This document shows positions 3,860 to 55,761 of a DNA stretch of 64,000 bases, piece by piece. Every line of letters begins with the position of its first letter. The first letter of the stretch is position 1. Location: positions 1-64,000 of the forward strand of contig JAAXHJ010000061.1 in the NCBI GenBank assembly GCA_012270965.1, written 5' to 3'. The DNA is from Candidatus Palauibacter poriticola (GTDB lineage: Bacteria; Gemmatimonadota; Gemmatimonadetes; Palauibacterales; Palauibacteraceae). The notes under the pieces were generated by a model, which saw nothing but the letters and a program-made list of their open reading frames with translations, made no database searches and had not been told where the DNA came from. The translations under genes and the position numbers were made by a program.

Positions 3860-4825
3860 ATGAAACCAGAGACGGTCGTCATCATCGGCTCGGGCCCCGC
3901 CGCGTGGACGGCGGCGATCTACGCGGCTCGCGCCAACCTGAAACCGCTCGTGTTCGAGGGCGCGGGGAGCCGCACCATGATCCCCGGTGGACAGCTCATG
4001 TTCACGACGGATGTGGAGAACTATCCCGGTTTCCCCGAAGGGGTTGGCGGCATTGACATGATGCTGGACTTCAAGAAGCAGGCGCTGCGTTTCGACACGC
4101 GCGTCCTCACCGAGGATATCGTCCAAGTCGACTTCTCGCGGCGACCCTTCCGCCTGCACTCCTCGGGGGGACGGGACGTGCGGGCACAAACCGTGGTCGT
4201 GGCCACGGGGGCCAACGCCCGCTGGCTCGGCGTGCCGGGCGAGGAACGGCTCGCGCAGAGCGGCGGCGGGGTGTCCGCGTGCGCCGTGTGCGACGGTGCC
4301 CTGCCCGCCTTCCGAGACCGGATCCTGGCCGTGGTCGGGGGTGGCGACAGCGCGATGGAGGAGGCGCTCTACCTGACGAAGTTCGCGAGCGAGGTGCTGC
4401 TCATCCACCGGCGCGACGAGCTGCGGGCTTCGCGGATCATGCAGGAGCGGGCCTTCGCCAGCGACAAGATCCGCTTCCTGTGGAATCGGACGGTGGAGGA
4501 AGTGCTGGGGGATGACGCAATCACCGGCCTTCGCCTCCGCGACACCGTGACGGGAGAGGAGACCGAGATCGAGGTGGGCGGGATGTTCGTGGCGATCGGC
4601 CACATCCCCAACACGGGGTTCCTGCGGGGCCAGCTCGACCTCAAGGACAACGGCTACGTGGACATGCCCACGGCGTGGCGCACGGAGACGAACGTGCCCG
4701 GGGTGTTCGCGGCGGGGGACGTCATGGACGACTACTACCGGCAGGCGGTGTCGGCGGCGGGCACCGGATGCATGGCCGCGCTCGACGCCGAACGCTTCCT
4801 CGCCCACCACGGCCCCGCCGACTGA
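3860..4825 (+). CDS. trxB: Thioredoxin-disulfide reductase
   Basis: 321 residues, the usual length for low-molecular-weight NADPH:thioredoxin reductase, a cytosolic FAD flavoprotein that reduces thioredoxin. The N-terminal FAD-binding motif is [20 protein letters not shown], the redox-active pair is CAVC at residues 141-144, and the NADPH-binding motif [15 protein letters not shown] follows. A C-terminal FAD motif ([23 protein letters not shown], shortened here to [11 protein letters not shown]) completes the fold. It starts at ATG 3860 and is followed after 6 bp by a small unknown gene. A reducing system next to a putative selenoprotein OsmC gene (2 kb away) is suggestive but not proof of a link. 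Confidence 0.95.
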
Positions 4826-6829: not shown

Positions 6830-6854
6830 TTGGGGTCGAGCAGGAACACTCTTG

Positions 6855-7415
6855 CTACTCGGGGTGAGGGGTGGGCCGTTGGCGGATCTCGCGCCGCGGC
6901 GGTAGGAGCGCGTCCGCGCGGGCCTCATCCGCAAGCAGCGTTTCCTCGAGAGTTGGTTTGGTCTCCGTGATTTCGGCGGTCCAGGTCACCTTGATCGCGC
7001 CTTCCAGGGAGCGTGCGGTGGGGCACTTCGCGTCGTGGGTCGCGAGGGCCCGGTCGACGGTCTCTCGCGCCGCGGCGGGGACGCGCAGCCGGTAGTGGAC
7101 GATGATCTCCTCCAGCATCGGCATGCGGTCGCGGAGGTGCATGACGCCCTCCGCTTCGGCGTCGATGTCTTGGGGGGCCAGGCGGATGCCGCGCACTTCC
7201 AGTGCGCCGTTGAGCGTGCCCAGCATTCAGGCGCCGGTGGCGGCCACTTGGTAGTCGACGGGGAGCGGCAGGTCCTTCGCGTCGATCCGGTAGTGGGACT
7301 TGATCGGTCCGTGGACGCCGAAGTCGATCTCGGTCCCCTCCTCGAGGCGAGCCCGGCGGTGGACTCCCTCGACCTTCTCGAGACGCGCGCGGGCGGTGTA
7401 GAACGGTTCGGACAC
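6855..7415 (-). CDS. OsmC-family peroxide reductase, probable selenoprotein (UGA = Sec)
   Basis: Two adjacent in-frame reading frames separated by one TGA (7229-7227) together make a complete OsmC-family protein of about 186 residues. The first part ends DYQVAATGA, then TGA, then MLGTLNGALEVRGI. In OsmC/Ohr proteins this site at the start of the central helix holds the peroxidatic cysteine; here it is codon 63, matching Cys59 of E. coli OsmC. The second conserved cysteine is kept in DAKCPTARSL. The start is GTG 7415, preceded by AAGGAG with 6-nt spacing. A perfect 7-bp hairpin begins 19 nt after the TGA (see separate entry). OsmC-like selenoproteins are known from marine metagenomes. The alternative is a nonsense mutation, but that would have to fall exactly on the catalytic Cys codon with the frame intact on both sides. 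Confidence 0.75.
7191..7229 (-). promoter_or_regulatory. Candidate bacterial SECIS element after in-frame UGA
   Basis: Reading the minus strand, UGA (7229-7227) is followed by 19 nt, then GCGCACT, loop GGA, then AGTGCGC (7207-7191). That is a perfect 7-bp stem with a 3-nt loop beginning with G. This agrees with the general bSECIS description: an apical stem-loop inside the coding region, roughly 16-37 nt past UGA, small loop, G among the first two loop bases. Such an element would recruit SelB with Sec-tRNA. GC-rich coding DNA forms hairpins easily, so the fit is supportive rather than decisive. Confidence 0.6.
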
Positions 7416-7562
7416 GACGTTCTCCTTGTTCTGGCGGAGCGGGATGCGCGGGTTCCCGTGCCCCTTGGTGGGCTCTTCCTTTACGCGCCCGCCTTCCCTG
7501 CCGCATTTTCGGGCGGCGAGATTCGGGCGTGACCCCAAACGTAACGATCAAGAGCGGCCAGA

Positions 7563-46783: not shown

Positions 46784-47982
46784 GGCCCCACTTCAATCGC
46801 GGTCAGCGCTTCCCGGGGTTCCTGTAGAAGGCGGTCGAGGAATCCGTGAACCGGGCGGTATAGTTCGTCTTCCGGTCGTTGCTCAACTCGTCGCCCGCCA
46901 ACCGAGATCCCCGATTTCCCTTCGGGAAGAAATCGAGCGGGAAGAAACGACAGGACGGCGACGGGCTTGTCGCCGCACTCGTGGATGTGGATGAAGAGCG
47001 GGCTGGCCCGCCGGTCGAGGCCGTGGTCGGCGGGTCCAACCTGGTGCTCCCGCCTCGGCCCGTAATTGTGCGGCAGCCCGAAGGCGACGCGGCGGGGATG
47101 GGTGGGAGCGCTCGCATACTGCATCTTCATCAGATCGTGATCGTCCTCGAAGTTTCGTTCCGATTCCATACCTTGCAGAATCCGGCCGCCGCGACCCCAG
47201 CTCCGGTATCTGATGAGCTCGCGTCCGATCAGATCGAGTAACGTCAAAGGCACACGAGGCGTGTGCGAATCGCTCCACACCAATACATGCCGCGCCCGAT
47301 CAGACAACGCAGTGTACTCCGGCAACACGTCGCTCACGCCGGTTCGGCGCAGCCGGGCGACGCACTTCTCGAGGTCGTCCTTGGATCGCGGGGCAGCCCA
47401 GCGGCTCTTGCCGTCCACCATCAGAGAGCGGAGAACCACCGAACCGAATCCCTTGCGGCTCTTCGCGCCCATGCCGCCGAAGACTCCCGTCGCGATGAGT
47501 GCGTCTCGCAGCAGATCCGTTCCGCCGGGGGTCAAGCGCTTCCCACTCCTCTCCAGATCGCGGACGCGCATCCGAATCGTGAACTCGCAGGGTGCCTGAA
47601 GACACTCCCGAGTCCCTTTCTTCCGGCTCGGGAAAGCCTCCATGACCCCGTACCCAAGATAGCGCACCCCTTCTCCGACCGGCTTGGTCGTGTCCGGAAT
47701 CCGGAGTATATCTTTCGCACGCGCCGTCGCCGGTCGGCCAACCTCCGAATCCAGCCGCATGGTCACCATGGATTGACCGTCCCGGGCGCTGCCGAACAGC
47801 TCGTCCTCCCGGCGCCGAATCTCCTCCAGATCACCCCCGTGCTCCTCCCAGGCGAGGGCTCGCCACCAGTACCGCAGAACGCCTTTGAAGCTGGACATCC
47901 GCAGCTCGGCCCGTGCCGGATCGGCACCGCCGGAGAACATCGGCGTCACGACCTTGTATGCGGCGTCAATTCGCGTCGGCAT
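46780..47982 (-). CDS. cmr1: Type III-B RAMP protein Cmr1
   Basis: About 400 residues. The N-terminal RAMP begins AAYKVVTPMFSGGADPARAE, then LRMSSFKGVLRYWWRALAWE, diagnostic of Cmr1, the Cas7-like end piece that binds the 3' part of the crRNA. The block GGMGAKSRKGFGSVVL is the family's Gly-rich loop. ATG 47982 has GAGGGGGCGG just upstream; the earlier ATG at 48000 lacks a ribosome binding site. The start lies 17 bp inside the CARF gene. It is the first structural Cmr gene of the operon. Confidence 0.93.
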   Translation of the reverse strand: MPTRIDAAYKVVTPMFSGGADPARAELRMSSFKGVLRYWWRALAWEEHGGDLEEIRRREDELFGSARDGQSMVTMRLDSEVGRPATARAKDILRIPDTTKPVGEGVRYLGYGVMEAFPSRKKGTRECLQAPCEFTIRMRVRDLERSGKRLTPGGTDLLRDALIATGVFGGMGAKSRKGFGSVVLRSLMVDGKSRWAAPRSKDDLEKCVARLRRTGVSDVLPEYTALSDRARHVLVWSDSHTPRVPLTLLDLIGRELIRYRSWGRGGRILQGMESERNFEDDHDLMKMQYASAPTHPRRVAFGLPHNYGPRREHQVGPADHGLDRRASPLFIHIHECGDKPVAVLSFLPARFLPEGKSGISVGGRRVEQRPEDELYRPVHGFLDRLLQEPREALTAIEVGP

Positions 47983-49747
47983 CTTCCGCCCCCTCGCCAT
48001 CAAGCCAGAACGGTTCGCCAACCTGGTACGGATCCGCGTCCTGCTCGGCGGGTGGTCTCCGGTCGATCAAACCAAAGCGGCGCACCGGCCGCGCGAAACG
48101 CCGCGCCTCGGCCGCCAGCGCCTCGGCCGCCAGCCCCATGACGGTCGTGCCTCCCGTTACGTTCACGAACACATCATCGGCACCGACGAGATGCCTCCGT
48201 CCGGCCTTCACCGCCGCCTGTATCTCGCCATGGCCGCCGTGGGGGTCGATCCGGACCGCCTCGATCCGGCCGGCGAACCGCGCGTGATTCGCTGCCTGCT
48301 CGACCAGCACCTCCGTCTCCGGCGAACAAATCGCGAGGCAGATCGTCGGCTCGGCATCGTCCGCCGCCGCCCGGCACGCCTCCAGCGCGCTGAATAGCAC
48401 GCCGGGGCGCCTGCCGACCGGGCTCACTAGCACGCGCTCGCCGACGTCTCCGAACGTCAGCGACCAGTCCGGGAACATCTTTAGCTCTCCCCACACCTCC
48501 GTGATTCGCCTTTCCTGCAGGGCTGTCTGCTGGCCCAGCAAATCCTGCTTGCGCATGCCGTGGTGGGCGTAGGCGTTCCGCGTTTCGGAGAGGCCATTCC
48601 AGAACTTGCCCAGCCGGCACTGCTCGTCTGACAGCAAGACCTTGAGTTCCGAGTCTCGATAAACCGCCCCGATCGCGCCAAGAAGACTTGCCGCTCTACC
48701 GCGTGATCCATGAAAGTCCAGCCACCCGGCTCCCGATTCGAGACGCCACACCGCCCATGAGACGGTCCACTCGTCCATCATCCCGAGCGCCGTCGCGATG
48801 CTTCCCCGCTGCAACAGATCGTCGATGATCGCCCCCTGTCGGGTCAGCTCGCCTCTCGACAGCTCGACTTTTGCCTTCCAACCACCGCCAGCCACTGGGT
48901 CATCCGGGAGTGCGAACTTGCGAAGCGTGTCCTCGAACCGCCGCACGAGTTCGTTGGTCAGCGGGAGGCGGTGATCTCCAGACAACCGCCTCCCGAGGGG
49001 TCTCAAGCTCTGCCGGAGAATGTCACGCGCATGCCGGCCCAACTCGAGCGGCAACCCCGAATGGTAGGCCTTCGACAGGTCCTTCAGACATTTGTCCAGT
49101 TGCCGAATCGACGGGTGGTCCGATCCGGTGGCCAGAGCTTCGGCAAGCGGAAGGGCACTGCCCGTGTCGCGCAGGACTCGCAGGGCGTAAACCCACCGCG
49201 GCAACTCCAAGAGCGGACGGAGGTCAAAAAAAGTGTTGGGTTGATCCCCCGGACCACCGAACACGCCGTAGTGCGCGCCGCGTACGCGGGCGATTCCGAG
49301 TGCCTCCAAGTAGAGGACGGCCGTGTACGCCAAGAACGAGAAGTGCCGGAACCCGTGCGTAAGGTCCACGGTAAGGTCAACAGAACCTCGTTCGGAAACT
49401 CGTTTGCAAACAGCGAGGAGGTATTCGTTTACACTTGCCTGCGTGTATCCGGATGGCACGGCCACACGCTCGACGGCACAGGCCGTACTGCGGAGTTCCT
49501 CCTGAAGAAGCGGCCAGCTTTCACGTTTGGCCTCAGGCGTGCAGAGGGCGATCACCCGGTCTGGACGAGCTTCGTCCTGGAGAAGGTTGAGCAGGGCGAC
49601 GGGCGCGAAACGCGATTCCGCGCACCGCCCATCCAAGGTGTAGGACGCCGCTATTGGGTTCGTCCCGAGCACGGTGAGGAGGATGTGCTCGCGGGTTTCC
49701 AAGACCGAAACCACCCTTCCCGCCTCGGGCGCGTCACCCACTCTCAC
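47966..49747 (-). CDS. CARF-HEPN-CARF-like CRISPR effector (DxTHG family)
   Basis: 593 residues from GTG. Domain 1 (~20-165) is a CARF domain of the TIGR02221/DxTHG type: ILLTVLGTNPIAASYTLDG and DLTVDLTHGFRHFSFLAYTA. Domain 2 (~190-415) is helical and holds the HEPN ribonuclease motif R-x4-H as RNAYAH (390-395). Domain 3 (~435-570) again looks like a Rossmann/CARF fold, with GERVLVSPVGRRPGVLFSAL, then VFVNVTGGTTVMGLAAEALA. In known families the first CARF binds cyclic oligoadenylate and switches on HEPN RNase cleavage. The third domain could be a second sensor or a ring nuclease that switches it off; that is inference. The start overlaps the ATPase stop (GTGA) and the end overlaps cmr1. Confidence 0.82.
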   Translation of the reverse strand: MRVGDAPEAGRVVSVLETREHILLTVLGTNPIAASYTLDGRCAESRFAPVALLNLLQDEARPDRVIALCTPEAKRESWPLLQEELRSTACAVERVAVPSGYTQASVNEYLLAVCKRVSERGSVDLTVDLTHGFRHFSFLAYTAVLYLEALGIARVRGAHYGVFGGPGDQPNTFFDLRPLLELPRWVYALRVLRDTGSALPLAEALATGSDHPSIRQLDKCLKDLSKAYHSGLPLELGRHARDILRQSLRPLGRRLSGDHRLPLTNELVRRFEDTLRKFALPDDPVAGGGWKAKVELSRGELTRQGAIIDDLLQRGSIATALGMMDEWTVSWAVWRLESGAGWLDFHGSRGRAASLLGAIGAVYRDSELKVLLSDEQCRLGKFWNGLSETRNAYAHHGMRKQDLLGQQTALQERRITEVWGELKMFPDWSLTFGDVGERVLVSPVGRRPGVLFSALEACRAAADDAEPTICLAICSPETEVLVEQAANHARFAGRIEAVRIDPHGGHGEIQAAVKAGRRHLVGADDVFVNVTGGTTVMGLAAEALAAEARRFARPVRRFGLIDRRPPAEQDADPYQVGEPFWLDGEGAEDADAN

Positions 49748-51297: not shown

Positions 51298-51473
51298 GAT
51301 TCGCCCGCCTGAGGTTCGATACGTCGGGACGCTAAGCGAAACGCGTTCACGTCGCAACGCTGGACGCTGGAAGTGTGTGCGGACCAAGTCGCGGCGCTGA
51401 CGAGGGCGACCTCGCAGGCCGGGGGCGCTTCCATGAGGGCGGCACGGGTCGAGAACCTGTTCGAGTTCCAGCC

Positions 51474-53476
51474 GCTTCAATGAGGCCGGGGCGGATCCGC
51501 CCCGGAAAGTCGACCGCATGGAGATGGGGACGGGCGGGCCGTACACGGCTTCAATGAGGCCGGGGCGACAGGGGCGGAACCGAAGGTTGACGCGCTGGCT
51601 TCAATGAGGCCGGGGCGGATCCGCCCCGGAAAGGTAGGGTACGTCACGCGGCCCGGAGAATCGCTCCGGCGCGCTTCAATGAGGCCGGGGCGGATCCGCC
51701 CCGGAAAGGCCACCGCAGTACTCACATTCGTGGCCGCTTTCCGATTCGCTTCAATGAGGCCGGGGCGGATCCGCCCCGGAAAGGCGCCAGCTGGCGGCGC
51801 GCGAGTCCATCTCCACCTCCACGCTTCAATGAGGCCGGGGCGGATCCGCCCCGGAAAGGGATGTCGCGTTGAGGGAGGCCATGCGCTGGCGGTCGCTTCA
51901 ATGAGGCCGGGGCGGATCCGCCCCGGAAAGTGGAACAGTTGCTAAGCGGGGTCAATATCAACTGGCAGTTGCTTCAATGAGGCCGGGGCGGATCCGCCCC
52001 GGAAAGACCGCCCCGGCGCGAGAACACCGAGAAAGGGAGAGGCTTCAATGAGGCCGGGGCGGATCCGCCCCGGAAAGGCCCTCCGGCGTGACGTCCCACA
52101 CCATGATTTCGCCGTTGCTTCAATGAGGCCGGGGCGGATCCGCCCCGGAAAGAAGACGGCATTGAAGTCGCCGTCTTCCCAACGGAGGACGCTTCAATGA
52201 GGCCGGGGCGGATCCGCCCCGGAAAGATGGAAGCTTACGCCGAGGTTGGCGTGGACCATGATCTCGCTTCAATGAGGCCGGGGCGGATCCGCCCCGGAAA
52301 GGTTGGGGCGGCAGACTGTAAGTTGCGCCCCAACAAAAGCTTCAATGAGGCCGGGGCGGATCCGCCCCGGAAAGATGCCTGACACCGCCGGCACCAATCC
52401 GGAAAAGGCGCCGCTTCAATGAGGCCGGGGCGGATCCGCCCCGGAAAGGCGGACTTTTTGCTCCGCTACGGCCCCGCCGCGCTTCAATGAGGCCGGGGCG
52501 GATCCGCCCCGGAAAGTCCGCTCCGCCCGGTAGACGTTCTCCGTCTGCGTCGGCGGCTTCAATGAGGCCGGGGCGGATCCGCCCCGGAAAGCTCGTAGAC
52601 CACGGCGTCGTCAAACATCTCCCGCTCCTCGCTTCAATGAGGCCGGGGCGGATCCGCCCCGGAAAGGAAGAAGACGTATCGCGGCTACGCCGCGAAGTTC
52701 CCGGGGCTTCAATGAGGCCGGGGCGGATCCGCCCCGGAAAGATGATACTAATACCCTTGCCACCGTTGCGCAAGCAAAGCTTCAATGAGGCCGGGGCGGA
52801 TCCGCCCCGGAAAGTCTGACCGACCGCGGCCAAGCGCTTCTCTCTCTGTGGCTTCAATGAGGCCGGGGCGGATCCGCCCCGGAAAGATCCTTGAGGGAAT
52901 CAAGGATGGGCGCAAGTTCGATCGCTTCAATGAGGCCGGGGCGGATCCGCCCCGGAAAGTGCCGGCGGGTGCGAGCGGGGTGGTTGCTGCTTGGCCGGCT
53001 TCAATGAGGCCGGGGCGGATCCGCCCCGGAAAGCTGATCGCCGCGGCGAAGGAGTCCTTCGTTCCTGATCGCCGGCTTCAATGAGGCCGGGGCGGATCCG
53101 CCCCGGAAAGTCAGGCCATGAACGACGATGAGAAACTCAACTTCATGGCTTCAATGAGGCCGGGGCGGATCCGCCCCGGAAAGTTTCCCGGTCTCGCGGT
53201 CAATCCGCCGGGCCGGGTGAAGCTTCAATGAGGCCGGGGCGGATCCGCCCCGGAAAGCATATGCCCCCCCCGAGAAGGATCATCAGGATCAAAAGGCTTC
53301 AATGAGGCCGGGGCGGATCCGCCCCGGAAAGCGGTGGGGCGTCCGGCCCCGGGAACGGGACTCGAAGCTTCAATGAGGCCGGGGCGGATCCGCCCCGGAA
53401 AGGTGTTTTCCGGCGTATCGAGCGGGGATCGGCTGCGGATGCTTCAATGAGGCCGGGGCGGATCCGCCCCGGAAAG
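51474..53476 (-). CRISPR. CRISPR array, 27 intact 36-nt repeats plus one truncated
   Basis: On the plus strand each repeat begins GCTTCAATGAGG, contains the perfect 20-nt palindrome CCGGGGCGGATCCGCCCCGG and ends AAAG. Intact copies start at 51474, 51598, 51673, 51748, 51823, 51895, 51971 and so on to 53441. One at 51548 keeps only its first 20 nt. Spacers are about 32-40 nt and all differ by eye. Read on the minus strand the repeat ends ATTGAAGC, a typical 8-nt crRNA handle, so transcription is leftward, away from cas2. A degenerate repeat-like sequence (GCTTCCATGAGGGCGG) at 51427 and the truncated copy mark the old, leader-distal end. Very uniform repeats suggest recent activity. Confidence 0.97.
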
Positions 53477-53694
53477 CTACCGTGTGGCAACTTCAAGAGC
53501 AACAACGCACTGCCGGGGCGTTTGCGACCGCTGGGCCTCGCGGCCGCATCCCGGCAGGGGATGTCCTGTACACACCTGGTTGTCAAATAGCCAACGCGTT
53601 GGGGAACTTCTGGTTAGCGACGATGCGACCGCTCCCGGTGGGGCGTCCGGTACCGGAGCGCTCGCGCCATCGCACGGCAGTTCGTTCCCACGCG
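53477..53694 (-). promoter_or_regulatory. Probable CRISPR leader
   Basis: The 218-bp gene-free stretch between the last repeat and cas2 lies upstream of the array in the inferred direction of transcription. It has a lower GC content than the surroundings near 53575-53615 and a TTGACA-like sequence on the minus strand at about 53579-53584, without a convincing -10 partner. Its position next to cas2 and the intact, newest-looking repeats supports a leader that carries the array promoter and the integration signal. Confidence 0.6.
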
Positions 53695-54000: not shown

Positions 54001-55761
54001 TCAGCGCGGAAGGTAGTGCGGGTAGGAGGCGATCTCGCCCTGCAAGTGTCGCGCGAGGAGACGGGCCTGCACCTCGATGAGGCGTCGCATCGACACCTGA
54101 TAGCCGAAGAGGGGATGGGTCGTCTCCGTCGCCATGCGGCGTTCGAACGCGGCCATGAAGGCCTTCCGCCCCGATGGTTTGAGCGAGCAGGCCGTTCCGT
54201 TCATAACGAAGTCGTTCGGCTTGACCTCGCCGTTGTTCACGACCTGTATGACGGTGGAATCGGCGATGATCGGTCGAAACGGCTCCATGAGATCGAGGGC
54301 CAGCGCCGGCCTCCCGTGTCGCAGGCGGTGATAAAGGCCCATGTACGGATCGAGACCGGTCGAGGAGATCGTGTGCGTCATGGCGCGCGTCAGAACCGCG
54401 TAGCCCAGCGACAACATCGCGTTGACGGGATCGCGGGGCGGGCGGCGGTTGCGGGTGGAGAAGGAGAACTCGCCGACTCCATTTTCGCGTCCCTGCGCCA
54501 ACATGCGGCCGAAGCTGCCGAAGTAGATCGCCGCGGCCTCTCCCTCGAGGCCGAGAAGTTGCTGCGCGTCTTGCGCGTGGCGCGCGCGGCGGGCGACACG
54601 CGTGAGTCCCGCCAGCGTCCGTTCCTTCCCATCCACGCCGTGCTCGGCCCTCCAGTTCCGGCGTAGCATGGTACGCGAGTTGCGAATCTTGGCATCGACG
54701 AGATCGCGAGCGAAGTCGAGCCGACGCTCCTCGCTGAAGGCGGCGCGGTACTGGGCTTCGCGCACCGCGACGTTGCCGTTTCCGGTTCCGACCGTGTGGC
54801 CGAGGAACCATCCTCCCATGGAGAACCACGACACCGGGATCTCCGCACGCATCAAGGCGTGCAGAGCCGGCGTCGTGATCGAAACCGGTCCGAACAGAAG
54901 CACCTGCGACACGTCGATCAGCGGCACTTCCACCCTGTCCTCGTCAATCTCGACGATCAGCCGCTGTCCACGCTTTCGCAGCCTCGCGCCCGGGGTCTGT
55001 ACGTAGAGAGGCAGCGCCGGATCATCGGAAGGATTGAGTGGGCGCGGAGGGTGTCCCGTCTTGAACAGGTTGGTCTCGTCCGGCAGACATATCCCCGCCA
55101 GAGAACAACGCGGACACTTTGGACTGTCCTCCAGCGGGGGCGGCCGAACACCGGCCTCGGCTGCGGCACGGAGATCGCGAATCGCCTCCAATGTCCTGGT
55201 CCGCAGCGCGTCATCCAGAATGACCGGCACGCGCTCCCGCGAGCCCGCGTACCAGATCGCGCCCCGTTCGACGCGGTATCCGTTGTCCTCCAAGATCATC
55301 GCTTGGACGCAGAGCTGGACGCGCTCCGGTTCGTAGACTCCGGCCGCCACGTGCGGCCGCTTCCCCTTCTTGAAGTCCACCGGCATGACGACGCCGTTAC
55401 GCACGTCGAGCACATCCATCTTGGCGATGACCCCGAGCCGCTCGGAAGAGAGCGTAACGGAGCGCACGCGAGACGTTTCGTCGCCGAGTGCGCCCGGTGC
55501 TGGCAAACGTCCCGAGGCCCTGTCGACGCGTTTGTGGACGCGCCTTCCCTGTGCGGTATCCGAGCTATCGGCCCACTCTCCCTCGACCCATTCCAGGTAC
55601 GCCAGTCGCGGACAGTACACCCATTCGTTCACCATCCGGGCGGGGATAAGCGGCGTTGAGGACTGAAGAGCCGGGAGGGGAGACCGCGCGGTTGGGGGTG
55701 GACGTGGGATTCGGGGTGCTGCACGACGACTTGACTGAGTCCGCCTCTTTCCGTGTTCCAT
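54001..55761 (-). CDS. cas4-cas1: Cas4-Cas1 fusion protein
   Basis: 586 residues. The Cas4 part (~40-225) starts with MVNEWVYCPRLAYLEWVEGE and ends with the cysteine cluster SPKCPRCSLAGICLPDE, ligands of a 4Fe-4S cluster; VMPVDFKKGKRPH is the RecB-like nuclease core. The Cas1 part follows at ~245: LYVQTPGARLRKRGQRLIVE, then ISSTGLDPYMGLYHRLRHGR and ALALDLMEPFRPIIADST, holding the catalytic His and Asp. This fusion is typical of type I-G. Cas4 trims prespacers and helps choose the PAM; Cas1 integrates them. ATG 55761 has GGAG upstream. The N-terminal ~40 residues are basic and Pro-rich. Confidence 0.96.
   Translation of the reverse strand: MEHGKRRTQSSRRAAPRIPRPPPTARSPLPALQSSTPLIPARMVNEWVYCPRLAYLEWVEGEWADSSDTAQGRRVHKRVDRASGRLPAPGALGDETSRVRSVTLSSERLGVIAKMDVLDVRNGVVMPVDFKKGKRPHVAAGVYEPERVQLCVQAMILEDNGYRVERGAIWYAGSRERVPVILDDALRTRTLEAIRDLRAAAEAGVRPPPLEDSPKCPRCSLAGICLPDETNLFKTGHPPRPLNPSDDPALPLYVQTPGARLRKRGQRLIVEIDEDRVEVPLIDVSQVLLFGPVSITTPALHALMRAEIPVSWFSMGGWFLGHTVGTGNGNVAVREAQYRAAFSEERRLDFARDLVDAKIRNSRTMLRRNWRAEHGVDGKERTLAGLTRVARRARHAQDAQQLLGLEGEAAAIYFGSFGRMLAQGRENGVGEFSFSTRNRRPPRDPVNAMLSLGYAVLTRAMTHTISSTGLDPYMGLYHRLRHGRPALALDLMEPFRPIIADSTVIQVVNNGEVKPNDFVMNGTACSLKPSGRKAFMAAFERRMATETTHPLFGYQVSMRRLIEVQARLLARHLQGEIASYPHYLPR

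What the first reader, a model, noticed from the sequence alone, without database searches (positions are those of the whole stretch)
6855..7415. OsmC-family protein with UGA at the peroxidatic cysteine codon: probable selenoprotein
The sequence shows two in-frame parts of one OsmC protein split by a single TGA at 7229-7227, at the position of the peroxidatic Cys, while the second conserved Cys (DAKCPTARSL) is intact. A perfect 7-bp stem with a G-first 3-nt loop starts 19 nt downstream, as required of a bacterial SECIS. A GTG start with AAGGAG lies at the right distance. OsmC-like selenoproteins are known from marine metagenomes, but a case in this putative phylum with its own hairpin is unusual. 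A simple nonsense mutation would have to strike exactly the catalytic Cys codon and leave both halves undamaged.
Basis: partly seen in the sequence, partly recalled or inferred. Interest (0 to 1): 0.85.

Follow-up and report, generated by a model that had tools for sequence, protein, structure and literature searches.

The report
Selenium-containing OsmC redox protein, Gemmatimonadota
The apparent nonsense codon in this bacterial peroxidase-like gene is almost certainly read as selenocysteine at the active site, and the same arrangement is conserved in many members of the phylum, which makes it a new branch of a known kind of selenoprotein.

Summary
A GTG-started OsmC-domain gene (7415-6855, minus strand) is interrupted by one in-frame TGA (7229-7227) at the column of the OsmC active-site cysteine; the second cysteine (C131) is intact. 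It is very probably a selenoprotein gene, not a decayed one. The host genome has tRNA-Sec, selA, selB and selD. In 70 of 70 non-duplicate relatives read, TGA stands in the same column. They form two paralogous subfamilies; the host has one gene of each. No cysteine form of these subfamilies was seen in the listed matches. A 7-bp hairpin 19 nt after the UGA is kept in 66 of these 70, with compensatory changes that occurred more than once. The hairpin alone would not convince: about 9% of synonymous recodings do as well. OsmC-like selenoproteins are known from marine metagenomes; the window protein falls far below NCBI's OsmC_like_Se cut-off. Sec insertion itself is inferred. The window copy's last 34 or so residues are an antitoxin tail acquired by deletion.

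The parts
6855..7415 (-). osmC-U gene, GTG start, TAG stop, one in-frame UGA; 186 residues counting Sec63
   Evidence: PF02566 E 5.5e-12
7422..7427 (-). AAGGAG ribosome-binding-like site, 6 nt before GTG
   Evidence: read directly
7227..7229 (-). UGA read as Sec63, in the column of the OsmC active-site cysteine
   Evidence: 70 of 70 non-duplicate loci read have TGA here; the column holds Cys in solved OsmC 1ukk and in 14 of 14 distant Cys-type OsmC of the phylum
7191..7207 (-). predicted bacterial SECIS hairpin: 7-bp stem, GGA apical loop (7200-7198), loop 26 nt after UGA
   Evidence: meets the model printed in PMC13188914 (passage)
7023..7025 (-). Cys131, conserved second (resolving-type) cysteine
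   Evidence: invariant in 70 of 70
6858..6959 (-). C-terminal tail derived from the end of a Phd/YefM-type antitoxin gene, joined in frame by deletion; not OsmC
   Evidence: blastn against relatives; intact antitoxin ORF, PF02604, in L093

Best explanation
The gene encodes an OsmC-superfamily selenoprotein. The ribosome reads UGA at codon 63 as selenocysteine, using the genome's own SelA, SelB, tRNA-Sec and SelD and the SECIS hairpin 19 nt downstream, and goes on to the TAG at 6857-6855. By analogy with OsmC/Ohr, Sec63 most likely attacks a peroxide (probably an organic hydroperoxide), becomes a selenenic acid, and is resolved by Cys131 as a selenenyl-sulfide, which a dithiol reductant reopens. 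Shown here: conserved in-frame UGA, its alignment with the active-site Cys, conserved C131, covarying hairpin, complete set of Sec genes. Inferred: actual Sec insertion, peroxidase activity, substrate and reductant. The confidence given is for Sec insertion; for the peroxidase reading alone about 0.7.
For: Sec genes in the host: tRNA-Sec 79.7 bits with anticodon TCA by ARAGORN, selA 479.7 bits, selB 365.7 bits with a SelB winged-helix domain, selD 364.8 bits with its own in-frame TGA. By my count 119 of 119 rows that span residue 63 have a TGA inside; 69 of these plus L048 were read base by base, and in 70 of 70 the TGA is in the same column. The column is Cys in 1ukk and in 14 of 14 distant Cys-type OsmC of the phylum. 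Hairpin: 2 pairs with changes on both sides, 28 such cells and a covariation score that 0 of 500 shuffles reach; on a tree built without the stem's own residues the stem types need at least 7 changes, the rarest type 3. Codon 71 is GCA in 44 of 44 loci where codon 74 is GTG, GCG in 18 of 18 where it is GCG, GTG in 5 of 5 where it is GCA (the three loci of the shifted clade have GCC/GCC). Both halves are under purifying selection, dN/dS 0-0.12 before and 0.25-0.45 after UGA against 9 relatives. Of 115 osmC-U genomes 107 have tRNA-Sec at E<=1e-10 (Fisher p 8e-12, not corrected for kinship), and 7 of the other 8 have selB over its cut-off.
Against: No protein-level data. The hairpin of one gene is not rare by itself (266 of 3000 recodings for the window; 153, 154, 380 and 285 of 3000 for L025, L035, L050 and L058). 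In one search two of the five measures do not favour the structure: the number of pairs with a change on both sides (2; reached by 181 of 500 shuffles) and the number of further pair types (5; reached by 500 of 500). Three loci of 70 (L053-L055) lack the standard hairpin; a shifted stem with a GGA loop 18 nt after UGA can be drawn, but 1926 of 3000 recodings of L053 do as well. One genome (G036) carries both genes with UGA but showed no tRNA-Sec at E<=1e-7 and no SelB over cut-off; its assembly is fragmented and given as 91% complete. The glutamate ten residues before the Cys of OsmC/Ohr (role recalled) is not kept, so peroxidase chemistry is less certain than Sec insertion. The AlphaFold model was too poor to use (pLDDT 44.7).
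Confidence: 0.94

Rival explanations
1. The TGA is a nonsense mutation or sequencing error, and the gene is a pseudogene.
For: Formally a stop codon; the window copy does show a deletion at its 3' end.
Against: TGA in the same column in 70 of 70 non-duplicate loci read, in two subfamilies of which the second is 32-42% identical to the window protein; purifying selection on both sides; compensatory hairpin changes.
Confidence: 0.01
2. Two proteins are made: the ribosome stops at TGA and reinitiates at the overlapping ATG (TGAATG), giving a split OsmC.
For: The codon after TGA is ATG in the window and in 34 of 70 loci.
Against: In 36 of 70 loci that codon is CTG, CTA or CTC. A split would cut the OsmC domain at the active site, and leaves the conserved hairpin and the fixed choice of TGA unexplained.
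Confidence: 0.02
3. UGA is read as another amino acid (Cys or Trp suppression, or a changed code).
For: A thiol at residue 63 would also work chemically.
Against: In several near relatives the osmC frame itself ends at a second TGA; the host genome has a complete set of Sec genes.
Confidence: 0.02
4. It is a selenoprotein, but not a peroxidase: a Sec-dependent thiol oxidoreductase or disulfide-handling protein of the YhfA type.
For: The glutamate ten residues before Cys in OsmC (1ukk) is V, A, T or L here, while an invariant Asp sits one residue later, where 1ml8 (E. coli YhfA, name recalled) has Glu. A review files the OsmC-like selenoprotein under COG1765 YhfA (passage of PMC9312934).
Against: Sec and the second Cys keep the two-centre layout of OsmC peroxidases; 22 of 30 members match TIGR03562, OsmC family peroxiredoxin, at E<=0.01, though the window protein stays far below its cut-off.
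Confidence: 0.25

Closest known systems
OsmC-like selenoprotein of the Sargasso Sea and GOS metagenomes (PMC1088965; PMC2398784)
   Same: OsmC/COG1765 family, Sec in the redox motif, bacterial SECIS
   Different: Published motif is UxxT, from 3 and 5 sequences (passages); here G66 and T67 follow Sec63, so Thr is at +4, in 70 of 70. The published sequences could not be aligned here
NF041052 OsmC_like_Se (NCBIfam, OsmC-related (seleno)protein)
   Same: 19 of 30 members match it at E<=0.01; residues 48-148 of the window protein align
   Different: 24.2 bits for the window protein against a cut-off of 95
Osmotically inducible protein C, PDB 1ukk
   Same: Both redox centres align: Cys with Sec63, and the Cys of CPVSRAL with C131
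   Different: Cys in place of Sec; the Glu ten residues before it is not conserved here; profile match of 28 bits only
PDB 1ml8 (hypothetical protein, crp region; YhfA of E. coli by recall)
   Same: Acidic residue nine before the redox residue, GGC context, second Cys aligned
   Different: Weak match (E 0.017); the Pro of the CP motif is not kept

Membership tests
bacterial selenoproteins | In-frame UGA in the column of a redox Cys of homologues | tested here: met
bacterial selenoproteins | SECIS: loop 3-9 nt, stem 4-16 bp, G in the first two loop positions, loop 16-37 nt after UGA, <= -7.5 kcal/mol (passage of PMC13188914) | tested here: met
   7 bp, GGA, 26 nt, -9.7 kcal/mol for the stem-loop; covariation
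bacterial selenoproteins | Sec genes selA, selB, selC, selD in the same genome | tested here: met
bacterial selenoproteins | Sec found in the protein | not testable with these tools
   needs mass spectrometry or 75Se labelling
OsmC superfamily (PF02566) | Match over the gathering score | tested here: met
   46.4 bits against 27.5
NF041052 OsmC_like_Se | Score over the curated cut-off of 95 bits | tested here: not met
   window protein 23.5 and 24.2 bits; bits of the other members are not printed, their best E-value is 1.4e-9
published OsmC-like selenoprotein, motif UxxT | Thr at +3 from Sec | tested here: not met
   G66 at +3 and T67 at +4, both invariant in 70 of 70
OsmC/Ohr peroxidases | Glu ten residues before the peroxidatic Cys (role recalled) | tested here: not met
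   V/A/T/L in that column among the 30 aligned members; invariant Asp54 one residue later
OsmC/Ohr peroxidases | Organic hydroperoxide reduction | not testable with these tools
   needs an enzyme assay

The most novel reading that the evidence does not exclude
Two paralogous OsmC subfamilies that exist only in the Sec form have been kept across the Gemmatimonadota, with one nearly invariant SECIS (GGA loop, 26 nt after UGA) that, as far as the covariance search of the host genome shows, serves these two genes alone; Sec would then be not an optional upgrade of a Cys enzyme but a requirement of the chemistry, in a phylum where 277 of 395 sampled genomes keep tRNA-Sec.
Probability: 0.35. Interest if true: 0.55.

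Novelty: new member of a known kind. Interest (0 to 1): 0.45.

Why it matters
Under the standard code the gene is cut in two at its active site. Reading it correctly adds two OsmC subfamilies, seen here only in the Sec form, to the prokaryotic selenoproteome, and points to a phylum, Gemmatimonadota, in which 277 of 395 sampled genomes have tRNA-Sec at E<=1e-10. I found no paper on selenoproteins of that phylum in the two searches made for it (selenocysteine + Gemmatimonad, 19 papers listed; selenoprotein + Gemmatimonad, 15 of 18 papers listed; judged from titles and starts of abstracts), and the word stem Gemmatimonad does not occur in the main texts of three selenoprotein papers. The covarying codons make a clean natural case of an RNA hairpin constraining both synonymous and amino-acid-changing sites.

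Tried and rejected
Structure prediction from 7 close sequences gave pLDDT 44.7 and was dropped; no fold search was run. Plasmids gave no match and viral contigs no relative; the one scan of genome contigs went to P0001 alone, which finds close relatives only. The family was therefore not followed outside the phylum. A covariance model of UGA plus hairpin, searched in the host genome, gave 26 matches at E<=10 (150 of 7412 first-look candidates scored): the two osmC-U genes with 66.3 and 60.4 bits, then 25.8 bits and less; two of the lesser hits were read and have no UGA in the frame of a gene there. My window scan for further selenoprotein genes gave none that I believe. The automatic group labels were wrong for some rows; the tree gives 51 and 19. 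The first tree had included the residues encoded by the stem; it was rebuilt without them, with the same 7 changes.

Full report
What is there. On the minus strand a gene starts with GTG at 7415 behind AAGGAG, runs to an in-frame TGA at 7229-7227, and continues open to TAG at 6857-6855. Read through, the product matches Pfam OsmC at E 5.5e-12. The part common to relatives ends near residue 152. The window copy's tail corresponds to the end of a Phd/YefM-type antitoxin gene that in relatives lies further downstream (blastn to L089, L090, L092 and L093). In L093 the antitoxin (PF02604) and the PIN-domain ORF after it (PF01850) are intact; L089 and L090 show a similar PIN-like ORF (by eye). In the window the sequence between osmC and the antitoxin's end is gone, and of the PIN ORF only the first bases are left before the symporter. 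In L091 osmC is followed by a short ORF and the symporter, without the pair.

Where it lives.

The UGA is conserved. In 149 related genomes 73 matched. By my count 119 rows span residue 63 and each has at least one TGA inside; the 7 other rows do not reach residue 63. All 70 have TGA in the same column, and Y6, G17, R20, H35, D54, G66, T67, R75, H127, C131 and P132 are among the residues invariant in 70 of 70. A maximum-likelihood tree splits them 51 and 19 with full support; the host has one gene of each kind, the second at G000:C39:19715-20167. Over 395 genomes of the phylum, drawn evenly by the tool, 129 matched: 115 strongly and 14 weakly. The row list is cut, so 29 genomes were searched again: the 15 of them with strong matches show 1 TGA, two of these (G171, G302) in partial matches; the 14 weak ones show no stop. 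With each of the 115 has at least one listed row with a TGA; some second rows were never listed. In 14 of 14 weak matches the column holds Cys and the second Cys is present. At 30-44 bits against 88-231 they are another OsmC family, not Cys versions of this one. In the solved OsmC 1ukk the column is likewise Cys.

The Sec genes. The host has tRNA-Sec (79.7 bits, anticodon TCA), selB (365.7 bits), selA (479.7 bits) and a selD with an in-frame TGA of its own (364.8 bits). Across the phylum sample 277 of 395 genomes have tRNA-Sec at E<=1e-10. Of the 115 osmC-U genomes 107 have it, against 170 of the other 280 (Fisher p 8e-12, without correction for kinship). Of the 8 without, a more permissive search found a match at E<=1e-7 in 4, in 3 over the family cut-off, one of them cut by a contig end, and 7 have selB over its cut-off. 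G036 has neither.

The hairpin. In 66 of the 70 loci all seven pairs form in the window's register, 65 with a GGA loop and one (L057) with GGC; L068 has a mismatch next to the loop, and L053-L055 lack the stem. The stem starts 19 nt and the loop 26 nt after UGA. It meets the published bacterial SECIS model (passage of PMC13188914). On 58 distinct sequences 96.3% of cells are paired; two pairs change on both sides, in 23 and 5 sequences; no shuffle of 500 reaches the percentage paired, the number of such cells or the covariation score, and no slid register exceeds 68.7% or a score of 0.099 against 0.243. Two other measures, the number of pairs changed on both sides and the number of pair types, are reached by 181 and 500 of 500 shuffles. 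On a tree built without the residues that the stem encodes, the stem types (with the shifted clade) need at least 7 changes and the rarest type, TG/CA, 3, so the covariation is not one inherited event. At codon level GCA at codon 71 goes with GTG at codon 74 in 44 loci, GCG with GCG in 18, GTG with GCA in 5, without exception among 67; the 3 shifted loci have GCC and GCC. GCA makes up only 137 of 1407 Ala codons in these genes, the stem ones and the 8 duplicate loci included. Against this: one hairpin alone is weak evidence (266 of 3000 recodings as stable), and L053-L055 do not have it.

How it works. UGA with SECIS recruits SelB, GTP and Sec-tRNA-Sec (established mechanism; passage of PMC13188914). 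Sec63 at the OsmC active-site column together with C131 suggests a peroxidase cycle through a selenenyl-sulfide. The Glu of OsmC/Ohr ten residues before the redox residue (role recalled) is absent, and an Asp one residue on is invariant, where 1ml8 has Glu. A YhfA-like thiol oxidoreductase is therefore a serious alternative for the activity. A thioredoxin-reductase-like gene lies at 3860-4825 (PF07992; the finer name is mine), and a similar ORF lies near osmC in L091; I saw none in the 5.5 kb around the gene of G046 (L094) and draw nothing from it.

Known or new. OsmC-like selenoproteins were described from the Sargasso Sea (3 sequences) and GOS (5), motif UxxT (passages), and are listed in reviews of 2022 and 2026 (passages). 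The present subfamilies have Gly at +3 and Thr at +4, and the window protein scores far below the NF041052 cut-off. I therefore call it a new member of a known kind. Papers were seen as search listings and passages; none was read whole. In the Palauibacterales paper PMC10469786 the search for 'selen' found only an author's name and 'OsmC' nothing.

Noticed in passing
51471-53495, 54001-55761 and 47966-49747: CRISPR array of 27 repeat copies beside a fused Cas4/Cas1 (NF049935 cas4g_cas1g, 787.5 bits), with an ORF matching the CRISPR_DxTHG motif model at 47966-49747.
   Followed up: partly
6835-6960: Remnants of a deleted type II toxin-antitoxin pair (Phd/YefM antitoxin tail fused to osmC, first bases of a PIN-domain ORF before the symporter); intact PF02604 and PF01850 ORFs in L093, PIN-like ORFs also in L089 and L090.
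   Followed up: yes
L053, L054, L055 (downstream of UGA): A clade of three genes of the second subfamily in which the standard hairpin is lost; a stem with a GGA loop 18 nt after UGA can be drawn, which may be a re-sited SECIS.
   Followed up: partly
L097 (G000:C34:123614-124537): SelD of the host has an in-frame TGA near its N-terminus, so it is probably itself a selenoprotein.
   Followed up: partly
L050, 5719-6168 minus: The second osmC-U gene of the host starts at the end of a NUDIX-like ORF; ORFs that look like SufS and SufD lie a few kb away (names from my reading, not from a family search).
   Followed up: no
L015/L041 (G091:C33, record VXNP01000066.1): A contig labelled Gammaproteobacteria carries an osmC-U 90% identical to the window's gene, while the same assembly has another, more distant copy (G091:C136); possibly a misbinned contig.
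   Followed up: no
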